DNA from: an uncultured Sphingomonadaceae bacterium
GTDB lineage: Bacteria > Pseudomonadota > Alphaproteobacteria > Sphingomonadales > Sphingomonadaceae
NCBI GenBank assembly: GCA_946480515.1
Contig: CAMLKX010000017.1
Coordinates: forward strand, 1 to 15,394
Length of the DNA stretch: 15,394 nucleotides
Direction of reading: 5' to 3'
Made by a program: the position numbers and the translations under genes. Of this stretch, positions 5,241 through 10,182 are shown piece after piece. Positions within the stretch are counted from its first letter, which is position 1, and each line of letters starts with the position of its first letter. Under the pieces are notes generated by a model that ran no database searches, was not told the DNA's origin, and saw only the letters and a list, made by a program, of their open reading frames with translations.

Positions 5241-5682
5241 GAGCGTCAGCCGCGGCTGTGGCCGGCCGGACTTCGAACACCACCCGCTGCTTGCCCGCCC
5301 GCACGAACTGCAGTTCGACCGGGACTCGCTGTCCGGCCCTAAGCCGTCCGGACAGATTGGTCAGCATCAGGTGCGTTCCCCCGGACTTCAGCGCGACCGG
5401 CTTTCCAGTCGGCAGCGGGAGACCTTGCGGGAGTGCTCGCATCCGCATGATCCCGCCGTCCATGGTCATGCTGTGGATCTGGACCTTGCCAAGATCGCTT
5501 CGCCCGCCGAGCAGCCGGTCGGGGGCACCCCCGTTCAGCAGCGTGACATAGCCGGCGGCAGCCGTCTGGCCGGGCGCGGTCTCCCGGATCCAGGCGCCGG
5601 TTGCCGATACTGGAGATTGGGCTTGAGCGGCGGCCGGAACCGCAAGCAGTGCGAGCAGGAACAGATTAGGCTTCACGAGCAA
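5227..5682 (-). CDS. PCu(A)C periplasmic copper chaperone
   Basis: A small periplasmic Cu(I) chaperone (PCu(A)C, formerly DUF461) that passes copper to Sco or directly to the CuA site of cytochrome oxidase. It has 151 residues. A hydrophobic signal peptide ends near AAAQAQ (residues 17-22). The family copper motif is visible as IHSMTMDGGIMRMR (His70, Met72, with Met79/Met81 following) and THLMLTNL (His104, Met106). A His-rich tail (AHAHH) may add metal affinity. The start is not ATG: TTG at 5682 or GTG at 5676 are the options, with a GAGG four or ten bases before them. Either choice overlaps the 3' end of the Anbu peptidase gene, which implies translational coupling. The next gene is its expected partner, Sco. 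Confidence 0.9.
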   Translation of the reverse strand: MLVKPNLFLLALLAVPAAAQAQSPVSATGAWIRETAPGQTAAAGYVTLLNGGAPDRLLGGRSDLGKVQIHSMTMDGGIMRMRALPQGLPLPTGKPVALKSGGTHLMLTNLSGRLRAGQRVPVELQFVRAGKQRVVFEVRPATAAADAHAHH

Positions 5683-6427
5683 CTGGCCTCGCTGGTTCGA
5701 ATGTGAAGGGCGGTAGCTGATTCATCCCTTCTCTCAAGAGCTTGCTCCAGCGAGCAGATAGTTCGTTGAAATAGGGATCATTGCGCTCGATCCGCTGCGC
5801 GTGGTCGATGCGATACTGATCACGCTCGATCGTCACAAGATCGAGCGGCAGGTCGACCGCAATATTGGCGCGGATGGTGCTGTCGAACGACAGCATCAGC
5901 ATCCGGATCGCCTCCTCGAAACTCATCTTCGGGTCATAGCCGCGGACGAGGATCGGGCGGCCATATTTTGTCTCGCCGATCTGAAAGAAGGGGGAGTCGT
6001 CGGTCGCCTCGATGAAATTCCCTTCCGGATAGACGAGGAACAGCCGTGGATCCTGTCCCTTGATCTGGCCGCCAAGGATCAAAGAGGCGGAGAAGGATGC
6101 GTCATGTTCATGACCGGCCCAGTCATGCTTGCGGATCACGTCGCGCAGCGTGTCACCGACGACATTGGCGATCTGGTACATCGATGGCGCAGTCAGGATC
6201 GAGGGGCTGCGATCCTTGGGCGCTTTGACGCGTTCCTTAAGAAGATTGATAACCGCCTGCGTGGTCGCCAGATTTCCGGCCGACAGCAGGACGATTGCCC
6301 GCTCTCCCGGAACTTCCACCACCTGCACCTTGCGCGCTTGTGACACGTCGTCCACGCCCGCATTTGTGCGCGTGTCGGCCATGAACACCAGGCCGCGGTC
6401 GAGCCGCATGGCTACACAATAGGTCAT
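5666..6427 (-). CDS. anbu: Anbu proteasome-like Ntn peptidase
   Basis: A predicted N-terminal-nucleophile hydrolase of the Anbu family (ancestral beta subunit, COG3484), related to HslV and the 20S proteasome beta subunit. It has 253 residues. I chose the ATG at 6427 over the longer frame from 6439 because it has a GGAG five bases upstream and gives MTYC, placing the catalytic Thr directly after the initiator Met. The expected triad is Thr2, Asp18 in MADTRTN and Lys33 in QARKVQV (17 and 32 if Thr is numbered 1). The GETKYGRPILVRGYD segment (around 153-167) is typical of Anbu and not of HslV. It is cytoplasmic. It follows the transglutaminase gene by 15 bases and overlaps the PCu(A)C gene start. 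The family forms open-ring or helical assemblies in published structures, and its substrate is unknown. Confidence 0.92.
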   Translation of the reverse strand: MTYCVAMRLDRGLVFMADTRTNAGVDDVSQARKVQVVEVPGERAIVLLSAGNLATTQAVINLLKERVKAPKDRSPSILTAPSMYQIANVVGDTLRDVIRKHDWAGHEHDASFSASLILGGQIKGQDPRLFLVYPEGNFIEATDDSPFFQIGETKYGRPILVRGYDPKMSFEEAIRMLMLSFDSTIRANIAVDLPLDLVTIERDQYRIDHAQRIERNDPYFNELSARWSKLLREGMNQLPPFTFEPARPVAREA

Positions 6428-6442
6428 AGTGCTCCGCAACGA

Positions 6443-7243
6443 TTATTGCTGGACCTGCACATCCACCGAAAGGGACTCGCCCTCCCCGCCAACGCGCATC
6501 CCGATCACCGGTGCCGCGTCACGGTAGTCGAGTCCAGTCGCGACCCGCACATAGCGCTCATCGGGTGAATGGCCATTGGAAATGTCGAACCCGATCCAGC
6601 CGACACCGTCGACATGGACCTCCGCCCAGGCATGGGTCGCATCCTGCCCGACCCTGTCGTTGAGCATCAGGTAGCCGGAGATGTAGCGGGCCGGAAAGCC
6701 GAGCAGGCGTGCGGCGGAGATGTAGGCATGCGCATGGTCCTGACAGACACCGGTACCGGCGGCGAGCGCCTGCTCAGCAGTCGTCTCGGGCGAGGTTTGG
6801 CCAGGCTGATAGGCGATGGCTTCCCGAACCCGCTCGGACAGGTGATGGGCCAACGCAATCCTGTCACCGGAAAAGCCATTCATCGAGCGAGCGAGAGTCT
6901 TCAGGCCCCTGCCTGGCTGGCTGATCGGCGTTGAGCGAAGGAAATACCACAGTGGAAGATAGCCTGCGTGCGGTCCGACGATGCCGTCGCGGCTGCTGAT
7001 CTCCACGGTTCCAAAGCAGCGAATGACGATCTCGCTGGTATTCGGCTCGATCGAGATCAGGTCGACCTTGTTCAGGTGATGGTCATTGAAGTGAACTTCC
7101 CTGCGACCGCCCTCCACCTCGATCTGCCAGTCCTCCACGATCTGGCCGATGCGGTCCTTGGGCGTAAGGCGCAGCTGCTGGAGTCCATGCTGCACCGGGC
7201 TGGCGTAGCGGTAGCGCGTTTCATGCTCGACCCGCAGCCTCAT
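6443..7243 (-). CDS. Transglutaminase-like cysteine protease (Anbu operon)
   Basis: A 266-residue protein with an N-terminal beta domain (residues 1 to about 100, starting MRLRVEHETRYRY, typical of the bacterial transglutaminase N-terminal region) and a transglutaminase-like core. The Cys-His-Asp triad is complete: Cys167 in GTGVCQDHAH, His204 in DATHAWAEV and Asp220 in IGFDISNG. Prokaryotic members usually act as peptidases or amidases rather than cross-linkers. Its ATG overlaps the TGA of the alpha-E gene (ATGA), indicating coupling. Together with ATP-grasp, alpha-E and Anbu it forms a recurrent conserved set (COG1305 type) proposed from comparative genomics to make, attach or remove a peptide or amide modification. 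The target is not known. Confidence 0.92.
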   Translation of the reverse strand: MRLRVEHETRYRYASPVQHGLQQLRLTPKDRIGQIVEDWQIEVEGGRREVHFNDHHLNKVDLISIEPNTSEIVIRCFGTVEISSRDGIVGPHAGYLPLWYFLRSTPISQPGRGLKTLARSMNGFSGDRIALAHHLSERVREAIAYQPGQTSPETTAEQALAAGTGVCQDHAHAYISAARLLGFPARYISGYLMLNDRVGQDATHAWAEVHVDGVGWIGFDISNGHSPDERYVRVATGLDYRDAAPVIGMRVGGEGESLSVDVQVQQ

Positions 7244-8187
7244 TGCTCCGGCTCAAAGCGGTAATCACGCTCGATCGCGGATGCGAGCGCATTGTTGGCA
7301 ATGAGAAAGTCTCCAACGAACTCATGCAGGCCGTCGGCGAAAATCCGCTCCATCGGCTCACTGAAGCAACGGCCCTGGACGTCTCCCGCCATTGCGTGAC
7401 AAGGAGGCGCTGCTCCGTACGCATCCTCAAGCGCAGCCAGCTTTGCCTGGATACGCGCGTAACAAAAGGCGAGGCTGCGCGGCATTTGTTCGTTGAGGAT
7501 CAAATATCGCGCAACGCTCATCGCCGAGATCTCACTGCCGTGCTGCCAGCGGAACGAGCGATAGGCCGAGACAGAGCGAAGGATCGTCTCCCACTGAATG
7601 ATGTCGATCGGCGAGCCGACCGCGGACACGGATGGGAGCAGCAGGTAATATTTGACGTCAAGCAGACGGGCGGTGTTGTCCGCGCGCTCGATGTGCAGGC
7701 CAAGCTCCTGGAAAAAGTAGATGTCATTGCGGAGCATGGTGTTGATCGCGGCCCCGCGGACCACCGAATTATATTTACGGACGGCGGCGATCAGCGCCGG
7801 TACCTCGCGTTCCCGAACGCGAGAGTTCCAGCTGTCGAACTCCATCCAGCCTTCATTGATAGCTTCCCAAACTTCACGGGTGAGTGCCGTCCGGACCCGC
7901 CGCGCATTGTCCCGTGCGATCTTGATCGTGGCGAGGATGCTTCCCGGGTTGGACCGGTCGAGCAGGAGATAATCGACCAGTCGGGTAGTCGTATACTCAT
8001 TGCCATGCTTTGCGTTGAAACCAGCGAGCTGACCCGTCGTGGTCAGAATGGAGGTCCATTCATTGGCTGCCGACGAAGCGCGGGTGAGCGCGATCAGGAA
8101 CCCGGCCGATAGCAGGCGAGCCGTCGCTTCGGCCCGCTCCAGATAGCGGTTCATCCAGAAGATGCCGGAGGCGGTGCGTCCGAGCAT
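7240..8187 (-). CDS. Alpha-E domain protein
   Basis: A 315-residue all-helical protein of the alpha-E family (COG2307), defined by conserved Glu/Arg-rich helices and of unknown biochemical role. The start MLGRTASGIFWMNRYLERAE is the standard family opening. A second copy of the motif, LHIERADNTARLLD, lies at about 164-177, and conserved Arg/Asn/Asp residues follow (IARDNARRVR, about 90-99). The ATG at 8187 is used rather than the in-frame GTG at 8205 because it overlaps the TGA of the ATP-grasp gene (TGATG) and matches the family N-terminus. Alpha-E proteins almost always accompany the circularly permuted ATP-grasp protein and are thought to work with it, perhaps as a partner or substrate-binding subunit. 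No signal peptide is present. Confidence 0.9.
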   Translation of the reverse strand: MLGRTASGIFWMNRYLERAEATARLLSAGFLIALTRASSAANEWTSILTTTGQLAGFNAKHGNEYTTTRLVDYLLLDRSNPGSILATIKIARDNARRVRTALTREVWEAINEGWMEFDSWNSRVREREVPALIAAVRKYNSVVRGAAINTMLRNDIYFFQELGLHIERADNTARLLDVKYYLLLPSVSAVGSPIDIIQWETILRSVSAYRSFRWQHGSEISAMSVARYLILNEQMPRSLAFCYARIQAKLAALEDAYGAAPPCHAMAGDVQGRCFSEPMERIFADGLHEFVGDFLIANNALASAIERDYRFEPEQ

Positions 8188-9599
8188 CAATCGTCCAGCA
8201 CCCACGTGTCCTTGGTCCCGCCGCCCTGGCTGGAGTTCACCACCAGCGACCCTTCAGTCATGGCCACGCGCGTGAGCCCGCCCGGAACAATGTCCACCCC
8301 GTCCGGCGAGACGAGGATGAAAGGACGGAGATCGACGTGCCGCGGAGCGAGCCCGCGCTTGCTGAAAATCGGTACTGTCGATAGTGCCAAGGTAGGCTGA
8401 GCGATGTAATTGTCGGGCTTGGCCTCAAGCTTGGCGCGGAACGAAGCCAGTTCCTTGCGGCTGGCAGCGGGACCGATCAGCATTCCATAGCCGCCCGAGC
8501 CATGCACTTCCTTGACCACCAGCTCGGCCAGATGATCGAGGACGTAGCTCAGCTGATCGGGCTCGGAGCAGCGCCACGTCTCCACATTGTCGAGCAACGG
8601 GGATTCGCCTGTGTAAAAGCGGATGATCTCCGGCATGTAGCTGTACAGTGCCTTGTCGTCGGCGATCCCCGTGCCTGGCGCGTTGGCCAAGGTAATCCCG
8701 CCGGCGCGGTAGACGTCGAACAGCCCTGCTATCCCGATCACGGACTCTGTCCGGAAGTTCAGCGGATCGATCCAGTCGTCATCAATCCGCCGGTACAGCA
8801 CGTCGATCGGCTGGTAGCCTCGCGTTGTCCGCATCGCGATGCGGCCATCGATCAGACGCAGGTCGTGCGCCTCGACCAGCTCGACACCCATCTGCTCGGC
8901 AAGGAAGCTATGTTCGAAATAGGCCGAGTTGAAGCTGCCCGGAGTAAGAACCGCAATGGTTGGCGACCCATCGCATGCGGGCGGAGCGCAGGCCGCGAGC
9001 GAGCGGCGCAGGCGCTGAGGATAATCGGAGATCGGTTGCACCGGAATTCGGCTGAACAGCTCCGGAAACATCTGCAGCATCGTTTCCCGATTCTCGAGCA
9101 TATAGCTGACGCCCGACGGGGTGCGCGCATTGTCCTCCAGCACCATGAAGCGGTCCGGACCGGTGCGCACCAGGTCGATCCCGACCACATGGGTGTAAAC
9201 GCCGGCCGGCGGGACGACCCCAGCCATCTGCGGAAGAAAGGCGCTGTTTCGCGCCACGAGCTCCTGCGGCAGCTTGCCCGCGCGCAAAATCTCCTGGCGG
9301 TGATAAAGGTCGTACAACAGGGCGTTGATGGCCCTCACCCGCTGCTCGATCCCGCGGGCGAGGCGCCGCCACTCGGATGCCGACAGAATGCGGGGAATGA
9401 TGTCGAACGGGATCAGCCGTTCGTCGCTGTCGGATTCTCCGTAAACGTTGAAGGTAATCCCGACGCGGCGGAAGAATGTCTCCGCCTGCTCCGCCTTGCT
9501 TTTCAGATGCTCGCTATTCTCTTGGTCGATCCACCGGCGAAACTCGGCGTATGCGGGCCTTGGCTCGCCGCCGCTTTCGTCGAGCATCTCGTCGAACAT
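8187..9599 (-). CDS. Circularly permuted ATP-grasp protein
   Basis: A 470-residue protein of the circularly permuted ATP-grasp type 2 family (COG2308), predicted to form a peptide or amide bond using ATP; the acceptor is unknown. Recognisable stretches are FDIIPRILSASEWRRL (about 65-80), GIDLVRTGPDRFMVLEDNARTPSG (about 141-164), YRRIDDDWIDPLNFR, ANAPGTGIADDKALYSYMPEII and the C-terminal SSQGGGTKDTWVL (about 457-469), all family signatures. The start at 9599 rather than the TTG at 9620 is backed by AGGAG five bases upstream and by the MFDEML opening. It is the first gene of the six-gene minus-strand operon. The operon promoter should lie in 9600-9700, but only a weak candidate is visible there (TTGCGC, 17-base spacer, AAGATG on the minus strand). 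Confidence 0.93.
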   Translation of the reverse strand: MFDEMLDESGGEPRPAYAEFRRWIDQENSEHLKSKAEQAETFFRRVGITFNVYGESDSDERLIPFDIIPRILSASEWRRLARGIEQRVRAINALLYDLYHRQEILRAGKLPQELVARNSAFLPQMAGVVPPAGVYTHVVGIDLVRTGPDRFMVLEDNARTPSGVSYMLENRETMLQMFPELFSRIPVQPISDYPQRLRRSLAACAPPACDGSPTIAVLTPGSFNSAYFEHSFLAEQMGVELVEAHDLRLIDGRIAMRTTRGYQPIDVLYRRIDDDWIDPLNFRTESVIGIAGLFDVYRAGGITLANAPGTGIADDKALYSYMPEIIRFYTGESPLLDNVETWRCSEPDQLSYVLDHLAELVVKEVHGSGGYGMLIGPAASRKELASFRAKLEAKPDNYIAQPTLALSTVPIFSKRGLAPRHVDLRPFILVSPDGVDIVPGGLTRVAMTEGSLVVNSSQGGGTKDTWVLDD

Positions 9600-9665
9600 C
9601 GCCGCTCCTGATCGTACCAACGCATCTTGGCAGATGTTTTGTGCGGCGCAACATGCTTAGGCCCG

Positions 9666-9694
9666 TTGACGAAATCCTTACGACTCCCTTATAC
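9666..9694 (+). promoter_or_regulatory. Sigma-70-type promoter of the leader transcript
   Basis: TTGACG (9666-9671) and TTATAC (9689-9694) are separated by exactly 17 bases, close to the housekeeping consensus TTGACA/TATAAT. The predicted transcription start is about 9700-9702, only a few bases before the ATG at 9705, so the leader reading frame would be translated from a nearly leaderless RNA. This fits the absence of a Shine-Dalgarno sequence there. It would drive the leader, the attenuator and the ACT-domain gene. Confidence 0.65.
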
Positions 9695-9704
9695 AGAACG
9701 ACCA

Positions 9705-9830
9705 ATGTCGAACGCGAACGCCTTGCCGATGATGCTCCAGCCGCTCTGCGGCCGGCTCTCGGCGTGCGCTCTTGTAGCAGTAGCGAAGGTAGCAAACCCG
9801 CAGCTTGGGGGTGTGCCCGGCTCTGCCTGA
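9705..9830 (+). CDS. Probable attenuator leader peptide, 41 residues
   Basis: A 41-codon frame starting a few bases after the predicted transcription start and ending at TGA 9828-9830, 32 bases before an intrinsic terminator. Residues 22-30 read ALVAVAKVA, and the three valines there (codons at 9774, 9780 and 9789) all use GTA, which is uncommon in this G+C-rich DNA; Leu23 uses CTT. Leader peptides of branched-chain amino-acid operons concentrate such codons where a ribosome must stall. No ribosome-binding site is visible, consistent with leaderless initiation. The rest (NANALPMMLQPLCGRLSAC) has no domain I recognise. It could instead be a non-translated structured leader, but the position, codon use and downstream hairpin favour a regulatory peptide. 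Confidence 0.55.
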   Translation: MSNANALPMMLQPLCGRLSACALVAVAKVANPQLGGVPGSA

Positions 9831-9892
9831 CGACCGATCTACAAACCGGTTCTGAAGTTAGACCCCGCCCCCACCAGGAGGCGGGGTTTTTT
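9796..9892 (+). promoter_or_regulatory. Candidate transcription attenuator (valine/branched-chain)
   Basis: Three mutually exclusive pairings can be drawn. Pairing 1:2 joins ACCC (9796-9799) to GGGT (9809-9812). Pairing 2:3 joins TGGGGGTG (9806-9813) to CGCCCCCA (9866-9873) over eight pairs with one G-T wobble, and would destroy the 5' arm of the terminator. Pairing 3:4 is the terminator at 9863-9886. A ribosome stalled on the GTA valine codons (9774-9791) leaves segment 2 free to form the antiterminator; one that reaches the stop at 9828 covers or disrupts segment 2, so the terminator forms. The 1:2 stem is short and weak. The layout is inferred from pairing done by eye. Confidence 0.5.
9863..9892 (+). 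terminator. Intrinsic terminator upstream of the ACT-domain gene
   Basis: A seven-pair stem CCCCGCC (9863-9869) / GGCGGGG (9880-9886), with a ten-base loop that may extend by two inner pairs, runs straight into TTTTTT (9887-9892). This is a textbook rho-independent terminator for plus-strand transcription. On the minus strand the hairpin is not followed by a T-run, so it would not end transcription in that direction. It lies between a promoter and the next gene on the same strand, with no complete gene other than the short leader frame between them, which is why attenuation is suspected. Confidence 0.85.
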
Positions 9893-9924
9893 ATTGCGTG
9901 TTGGCGAAGTGACAGGAGGAAAGA

Positions 9925-10182
9925 ATGTGTGAGATGGCGATCGAATTTGAACCCACCGACAATGTCATGCCCCGGGTTCTCGAGCGGATTGAAGATCATG
10001 GCTTCGTCCTGCGCGGTCTGAAGCTGATCCCGGCCAATCCGACCGGGCGATCGATGCTGCAGATCGACCTCGGCGGCTGGAACGAATGGGATGATTTGCG
10101 GGCGCTTGAGCAGGGCCTGTCCAGCCTCGACCCCTCGATCCGCGTGATCCAGCTCGCAACCGGTGCCACCGCCACCGCTTGA
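9925..10182 (+). CDS. ACT-domain protein resembling IlvM
   Basis: An 85-residue protein with a single ACT-like fold. The pattern VLERIEDHGFVLRGLKL (about 18-34), then a strand MLQIDLGG, then a helix with LRALEQGLSSLD and a final strand IRVIQL, follows IlvM, the small regulatory subunit of acetohydroxy acid synthase II, in length and order. That enzyme starts isoleucine, valine and leucine synthesis. The start at 9925 has a strong AGGAGG (9914-9919) at five-base spacing; the ATG at 9934 is too far from it. No catalytic AHAS subunit is next to it, so it may pair with one encoded elsewhere or sense amino acids for another enzyme. The leader and terminator upstream fit amino-acid control. Similarity is judged by eye; a generic ACT regulator remains possible. 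Confidence 0.7.
   Translation: MCEMAIEFEPTDNVMPRVLERIEDHGFVLRGLKLIPANPTGRSMLQIDLGGWNEWDDLRALEQGLSSLDPSIRVIQLATGATATA

What the first reader, a model, noticed from the sequence alone, without database searches (positions are those of the whole stretch)
9666..9924. Leader peptide with GTA valine codons and an antiterminator in front of an IlvM-like gene
The sequence shows a near-consensus promoter, a 41-codon frame with three GTA valine codons in 18 bases, a strong terminator 32 bases after its stop, and an eight-pair competing helix (9806-9813 with 9866-9873). The target is a small ACT protein like the regulatory subunit of acetohydroxy acid synthase. Classical ilv attenuators have this plan, but they normally sit before the catalytic subunit. 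Here a lone regulatory subunit seems to be under valine-sensitive attenuation, which would tune enzyme feedback rather than amount.
Basis: partly seen in the sequence, partly recalled or inferred. Interest (0 to 1): 0.75.

Follow-up and report, generated by a model that had tools for sequence, protein, structure and literature searches.

The report
Valine attenuator before lone IlvM-like gene
A short RNA switch that probably senses valine supply, of the type that sits before branched-chain amino acid operons in related bacteria, stands here before just one small regulatory-type gene, so valine shortage would probably raise that one protein alone.

Summary
In Sphingomonadales, all 14 ilvG-ilvM operons that I fetched (12 starting with ilvD, 2 with ilvC) have the same plan: a leader frame with branched-chain codons (GTA favoured), a leader end that can pair with the 5' arm of the terminator, and a terminator mostly of the CCCCGC...GCGGGG type. 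The competing helix co-varies across the set (permutation p 0.0006 for 15, 0.0025 for the 14 relatives; with my first region rule 0.005 and 0.019). The last 18 bases of the window leader match one relative at 16 of 18; none of 645 other stop triplets in the window does so well. The window differs in two ways: one divergent 85-aa IlvM-like ACT gene follows, with no ilv gene in 15 kb, and the leader has dropped isoleucine and most leucine codons but kept three GTA valines. So it looks like an ilv attenuator reduced to valine and to a lone ACT gene. 'Tunes feedback' is not supported: the positions I recall as the valine site of IlvH are changed. Whether the cell has any AHAS cannot be told; no genome is held.

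The parts
9666..9695 (+). promoter: TTGACG, 18 bases, TATACA; predicted start of RNA about 9702, 2-4 bases before the leader ATG (near-leaderless)
   Evidence: sequence. TTGAC lies 39 bases before the ATG here and 34-37 bases before it in 6 of 12 relatives with an ATG (L177-L182); in the other 6 (L183-L186, L188, L189) none lies within 60 bases of the ATG tried. Start site is inference
9705..9830 (+). leader peptide, 41 codons, tail LGGVPGSA-stop
   Evidence: last 18 bases 16/18 identical to leader of L188, 14/18 to L191; 0 of 645 other stop triplets reach 16
9774..9791 (+). regulatory codons GTA GCA GTA GCG AAG GTA
   Evidence: GTA 4.9% of valine codons in window genes but 21 of 40 in the last 60 bases of the 14 relatives' leaders
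9806..9813 (+). antiterminator strand TGGGGGTG inside the leader end (a longer bulged pairing uses 9804-9815)
   Evidence: co-varies with terminator arm across 15 attenuators; pairs listed
9866..9873 (+). partner of the antiterminator, overlaps the 5' arm of the terminator
9862..9892 (+). intrinsic terminator ACCCCGCC-loop-GGCGGGGT-TTTTT
   Evidence: model built from the 14 relatives hits 9860-9893 at E 2.9e-6; -21.6 kcal/mol
9914..9919 (+). ribosome-binding site AGGAGG
   Evidence: sequence
9925..10182 (+). 85-aa IlvM-like ACT protein, lone
   Evidence: no Pfam or NCBIfam match

Best explanation
This is a ribosome-mediated ilv attenuator of a kind found in Sphingomonadales, now driving a single IlvM-like ACT gene. 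RNA starts at or just before the leader ATG. If valyl-tRNA is short, the ribosome halts on the GTA codons at 9774-9791; the leader end is then free and pairs with 9866-9878 before the 3' arm of the terminator is made, and the ACT gene is transcribed. If valine is plentiful, the ribosome runs to the stop at 9828, covers the leader end, and the hairpin at 9862-9887 stops transcription at about 9892. Shown: the sequence parts, their match to 14 ilv attenuators, the co-varying competing helix, the IlvM-like profile and fold. Inferred: translation of the leader, the stalling, the response to valine, the start site, and that the product acts as a small (activating) subunit of an AHAS II-like enzyme encoded elsewhere. 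Likely origin (inference): an operon leader-ilvC-ilvG-ilvM, as in L188 and L191, lost or moved its catalytic genes and kept leader plus ilvM.
For: All 14 ilvG-ilvM operons fetched have leader frame plus terminator; gene order checked by tblastn in all 14. Own-versus-swapped pairing of leader end and terminator arm: p 0.0052 with my first choice of arm region, 0.0006 after I changed the rule because it had cut L180's arm; 14 relatives without the window 0.019 and 0.0025; thinned sets: 0.0022 (10) and 0.0092 (9). L189 has a wholly different but complementary pair (GAGGAAGCA/TGCTTCCTC); from L188 to the window an A-U pair becomes G-C (by eye). Leader tail 16/18 to L188. Terminator model E 2.9e-6. 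Before the 3' arm exists, the RNA free from 9796 or 9800 folds into the antiterminator; the RNA free from 9842 folds into the terminator. The ACT's nearest genome homologue is the IlvM of G411, whose leader is the second nearest. P0001-P0003, of 85-89 aa and 99, 74 and 67% identity, argue that the ACT is kept by selection.
Against: The window leader has at most 4 V/I/L in any 10 residues; the 12 relatives scored have 7-10. That also fits decay. The helix alone is not above shuffles, and 4 relatives (L177, L179, L182, L184) have only 5-6 pairs. The covariance model matched only with its terminator part (it also gave the reverse strand of the same hairpin at E 0.062), and CCCCGC/GCGGGG terminators are a common sort (recalled). 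Once the whole hairpin is made the antiterminator is the minimum only if RNA is free from 9796 (-39.1); free from 9800 or 9802 the terminator is (-38.8, -36.3), so the switch would rest on the order of synthesis. No homologue with the same lone arrangement could be read: P0001-P0003 come without DNA, and draws of 396, 298 and 267 genomes (overlapping) gave no close ACT; with profile A2 only G411's IlvM passed 0.001. No experiment.
Confidence: 0.7

Rival explanations
1. Operon relic: ilvC and ilvG were lost, and leader plus ilvM are left without function, drifting.
For: Leader has lost most branched-chain codons; 18 of 21 genomes with the nearest LD-transpeptidase had no AHAS large subunit at E 1e-100.
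Against: ACT ORF intact, with a strong ribosome-binding site, and conserved in three other sequences; all three valines in the key stretch are the GTA favoured in relatives' leaders; helix and terminator intact. No clear ilvC, ilvG or leuA remnant: 9 weak hits over two tblastn runs, E 0.008-0.093.
Confidence: 0.15
2. The ACT protein is no longer an AHAS subunit: it is a valine-regulated sensor acting on something else (for instance uptake or the stringent response).
For: No Pfam or NCBIfam hit; recalled valine-site positions changed; lone location; 18 of 21 genomes nearest by LD-transpeptidase lack AHAS. Val and Ile are reported to act on the RSH enzyme of Alphaproteobacteria (PMC6123439, passage), so branched-chain sensing outside AHAS exists in the class.
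Against: Closest relatives by profile are IlvM and IlvH and IlvN heads the fold list; the switch in front is an ilv switch.
Confidence: 0.2
3. The short RNA 9702-9892 or its peptide is the functional product (as reported for rnTrpL/peTrpL of Sinorhizobium meliloti), and the ACT gene has mainly another source of transcript.
For: Near-leaderless leader ORF and strong terminator, as in rnTrpL (PMC7298713 and PMC10117765, passages).
Against: The scan found no promoter between terminator and ACT gene, which is weak since it missed the one at 9666 too; the match is to cis attenuators of ilv operons.
Confidence: 0.08
4. Chance: an ordinary terminator and an unrelated open frame.
For: Open frame extends upstream to 9627; helix alone not significant.
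Against: Leader tail match, GTA bias, co-varying helix, same plan in the 14 ilvGM operons read.
Confidence: 0.05

Closest known systems
ilvGMEDA and ilvBN attenuators of Escherichia coli (leader peptides of 32 aa with 15 and 11 branched-chain residues, as stated in PMC6123439)
   Same: Leader peptide with codons of the end product, mutually exclusive antiterminator and terminator, before ilv genes.
   Different: There a catalytic subunit comes first in an operon; here only an IlvM-like gene follows. Leader is nearly valine-only and near-leaderless.
Attenuators of ilvD-ilvC-ilvG-ilvM and ilvC-ilvG-ilvM operons in Sphingomonadales (14 loci read here: L177-L189, L191)
   Same: Leader end pairing with the terminator arm, terminator sequence, GTA codons; leader tail shared with L188 and L191; a TTGAC box close to the ATG in 6 of 12.
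   Different: Those leaders carry Leu, Val and Ile codons and precede ilvD or ilvC.
ilvB leader peptide of Alphaproteobacteria credited to Vitreschak et al. 2004 (seen only as a mention in PMC1273637)
   Same: Ilv attenuation in the same class.
   Different: Named for ilvB; the original paper was not available to me.
IlvM, small subunit of AHAS II; IlvH/IlvN of AHAS III/I
   Same: Length, beta-alpha-beta-beta-alpha-beta fold, profile similarity.
   Different: 22-25% identity to three IlvM proteins of relatives; no Pfam ACT_5 match; recalled valine-site residues replaced; no adjacent catalytic gene.
Lone ACT_5-type genes divergent from an Lrp-type regulator in other genomes of the order draw (L121, L123-L126, L128-L130)
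   Same: A small ACT_5-like gene apart from an AHAS gene.
   Different: No hhalign match to the window protein (probability 5.6); next to a regulator gene (8 of 8), no attenuator seen in the upstream DNA printed.

Membership tests
Ribosome-mediated ilv attenuator | Short leader ORF with clustered codons of the end product | tested here: met
   Three GTA in 18 bases, GTA 4.9% of Val codons in window genes; but only 4 V/I/L in any 10 residues against 7-10 in 12 relatives
Ribosome-mediated ilv attenuator | Intrinsic terminator between leader and gene | tested here: met
   9862-9892
Ribosome-mediated ilv attenuator | Mutually exclusive antiterminator, conserved as a structure | tested here: met
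   Permutation tests over 15 attenuators; window alone not significant; fold outcome depends on where the free RNA begins
Ribosome-mediated ilv attenuator | Read-through rises when the cognate amino acid is short | not testable with these tools
   Needs reporter or RNA data
Sphingomonadales ilvGM-operon attenuator (set assembled here) | Leader tail and terminator of the same sequence family | tested here: met
   16/18 to L188 and 14/18 to L191, 3-9 of 18 to the other 12; 0 of 645 control stops reach 16; model R1 E 2.9e-6, terminator part only
Sphingomonadales ilvGM-operon attenuator (set assembled here) | First gene is ilvD or ilvC, followed by ilvG-ilvM | tested here: not met
   ACT gene alone; no clear ilvC, ilvG or leuA in the 15.4 kb
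IlvM (AHAS II small subunit) | Match to ACT_5 (PF13710) or the NCBIfam small-subunit models | tested here: not met
   0 families; three IlvM proteins of relatives do match ACT_5 over its cut-off
IlvM (AHAS II small subunit) | Homology and ACT fold | tested here: met
   hhalign 93%; AlphaFold2 model pLDDT 79.9, bab-bab; Foldseek first IlvN 5ypp, E 4.2e-4, tied with an ACT domain of a GTP pyrophosphokinase; the VIA-align list was headed by other ferredoxin-like proteins
IlvM (AHAS II small subunit) | Partner catalytic subunit in the genome | not testable with these tools
   No genome held for the window
Rfam leader families | Score over the gathering cut-off | tested here: not met
   0 matches in the window; two sRNA models below their cut-offs at the site; 0 in five relatives' loci

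The most novel reading that the evidence does not exclude
A split AHAS in which only the small activating subunit is under valine-only attenuation: valine shortage would raise the ratio of small to large subunit and so enzyme activity, without making more enzyme. The switch would have been narrowed from Leu/Val/Ile sensing to valine after the operon broke up.
Probability: 0.3. Interest if true: 0.62.

Novelty: new variant of a known kind. Interest (0 to 1): 0.45.

Why it matters
It gives a natural case of an operon switch that stayed with one small regulatory-type gene and narrowed its amino acid specificity, which can be compared step by step with 14 intact relatives. It also brings out a set of ilv attenuators in Sphingomonadales that no Rfam model matched in the five loci tested.

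Tried and rejected
Looking for the same lone ACT: plasmids (none), genome contigs with A1 (51 pattern hits, none confirmed), viral contigs (none confirmed), 15 genomes behind loci (nothing better than E 0.2), then draws of 396, 298 and 267 genomes. In some searches only G411's IlvM passed 0.001; the four hits at E 0.004-0.009 are three in 459-537-aa frames and G051's IlvM. Genus of G411: one genome only.

A further ATP-grasp search of 27 genomes gave at most 73%. Not resolved.

ilvI-ilvH operons as a source of the switch: 20 loci, about 400 bases upstream; terminator-like sites in 2, V/I/L-rich short ORFs in 5, both together in none (six upstreams read). Rejected.

Generic promoter and terminator scan missed both elements for stated reasons. 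The helix test on the window alone failed. The first arm region of the permutation test cut off L180's arm; both results are given. L179, L185 and L191 were not found by the leader script; their leader and terminator were located by eye or by a looser pattern. The MAFFT alignments A4 and A5 misplace some leader ends, so I counted no base pairs on them; the structure used for the model is the terminator only. VIA-align's top rows are other ferredoxin-like proteins and do not name a function; an AHAS small subunit is not among the 50 shown.

Both are mended, and the confidence lowered from 0.72 to 0.70.

Papers: searched the open library; none of the titles and abstract openings listed describes ilv attenuators of Sphingomonadales or an attenuated lone ilvM. 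Only passages were seen of PMC6123439, PMC7298713, PMC10117765, PMC1183508, PMC8632094, PMC5343134 and PMC1273637; a term search of PMC2864571 found nothing; the rest were seen as listings. Vitreschak et al. 2004 was seen only as a citation.

Full report
What is there. The leader ORF runs 9705-9830, with GTA at 9774, 9780 and 9789. The terminator is 9862-9892. Bases 9806-9813 can pair with 9866-9873. An 85-aa gene follows at 9925-10182 behind AGGAGG. Predicted RNA start is 2-4 bases before the ATG, so the leader is near-leaderless; S. meliloti trpL is a published case of a leaderless attenuator ORF (PMC7298713, PMC10117765, passages).

Is it more than chance. GTA makes up 15 of 307 valine codons in 15 window genes; 3 of 4 in the leader has P about 0.0004. 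The region folds 2.5 standard deviations better than shuffles. The 8-pair helix by itself does not beat shuffles. So I looked for relatives.

The gene. The ACT protein has no Pfam or NCBIfam hit. Two searches of about 5.8 billion proteins gave three relatives, P0001-P0003, at 99, 74 and 67% identity over the alignment. The predicted structure is bab-bab, pLDDT 79.9. Foldseek's first hit is IlvN with valine, E 4.2e-4, tied with an ACT domain of a GTP pyrophosphokinase; other ACT and ferredoxin-like folds are close behind. Profile comparison with seven IlvM proteins from Sphingomonadales gives probability 93, E 2.5e-7, over residues 3-54. A profile of the window protein, two relatives and three IlvM rows hits E. 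coli IlvH at E 1.2e-6. The best genome hit of the narrow profile A2 is the IlvM of G411, E 5e-4, found in draws of 298 and 267 genomes. Setting the window protein by hand on the alignment, the IlvH residues N11, G14 and N29, which I recall as valine contacts, correspond to P10, N13 and V28.

The switch in relatives. A scan for ACT_5 in 147 genomes of the order, a profile search in 396 and led to 14 loci with an IlvM-type gene behind an AHAS large subunit: G041, G021, G028, G051, G055, G035, G144, G233, G366, G280, G267, G340, G031 and G411. All 14 have, just before the first gene, a leader frame with branched-chain codons and a terminator; L187 and L191 have no ATG in that frame. By tblastn, ilvD is the first gene in 12, then ilvC and ilvG; ilvC is first in L188 and L191, where L191 has a divergent ilvD upstream and L188 none in 10 kb. 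NCBIfam names the ilvD of L182 and L186, the ilvC of L188, L191 and L131, and ilvG, leuA and ilvE of L131. In contrast, 20 ilvI-ilvH loci show no leader plus terminator together.

The competing helix. In each relative the leader end can pair with the 5' side of its own terminator: GAGCGGGG/CCCCGCTC, GGCCGGGG/CCCCGGCC, GGTCGGGG/CCCCGACC, GGGAGCGG/CCGCTCCC, GAGGAAGCA/TGCTTCCTC, and TGGGGGTG/CGCCCCCA in the window; four relatives (L182, L179, L177, L184) have only 5-6 pairs. Swapping arms among sequences gives lower scores: p 0.0006 for all 15, 0.0025 for the 14 relatives; with my first choice of region 0.0052 and 0.019. Relatedness is not modelled; thinned sets give 0.0022 (10) and 0.0092 (9).

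The window belongs to this set. A covariance model of the 14 relatives hits 9860-9893 at E 2.9e-6, in its terminator part only. The last 18 bases of the leader match L188 at 16 and L191 at 14 of 18, the other 12 at 3-9; over 645 other stop triplets on both strands the best is 14. L188 and L191 are the operons that begin with ilvC, and G411, the owner of L191, also holds the best IlvM match. Both halves of the window locus thus point to a leader-ilvC-ilvG-ilvM ancestor (inference).

What differs. Nothing clearly like ilvC, ilvG or leuA is found in the window. The leader has at most 4 V/I/L in ten residues against 7-10 in 12 scored relatives, and in its last 20 codons it has four valines, two leucines and no isoleucine. 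This is either narrowing to valine or early decay; conservation of the ACT protein speaks for the former.

How it would work. When the whole hairpin is present, the antiterminator stays the minimum with RNA free from 9796 (-39.1), but the terminator wins with RNA free from 9800 or 9802. With RNA free from 9842, as with a ribosome at the stop, the terminator forms. So the computed switch depends on the edge of the ribosome and on the order of synthesis. Published work describes this mechanism for ilvGMEDA and ilvBN of E. coli (PMC6123439, passages), and an ilvB leader peptide in Alphaproteobacteria is mentioned in PMC1273637 (passage). Rare codons in leaders are an old suggestion that PMC1183508 calls an oversimplification (passage).

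Verdict. The attenuator is real in all likelihood and belongs with a Sphingomonadales ilv set; its use before a lone, divergent IlvM-like gene is a variant. The physiological meaning is open: split AHAS, a new role, or relic.

Noticed in passing
L121, L123-L126, L128-L130: Eight genomes of the order draw carry a lone small ACT_5-type gene divergent from an Lrp/AsnC-type gene (8 of 8 by tblastn; Pfam for L126). Function unknown to me.
   Followed up: partly
genomes: Of 8 genomes with an IlvM-type ACT_5 gene, 7 have no second ACT_5 match at E 0.001, so IlvM seems to replace IlvH rather than accompany it.
   Followed up: no
genomes: Of 21 genomes with the nearest LD-transpeptidases, 18 have no AHAS large subunit at E 1e-100; five of them (G118, G127, G135, G150, G156) also show no ACT_5: a possible branched-chain auxotroph clade.
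   Followed up: no
L177-L189, L191: The ilv attenuators of Sphingomonadales have no Rfam model that reaches its cut-off in five loci tested; a family could be built from them.
   Followed up: partly
window 5666-9620: ATP-grasp, alpha-E, transglutaminase-like and protease genes lie in a row; tblastn found them in 80, 80, 79 and 76 of the 133 loci then held, 80 of which had been fetched by the ATP-grasp gene.
   Followed up: no
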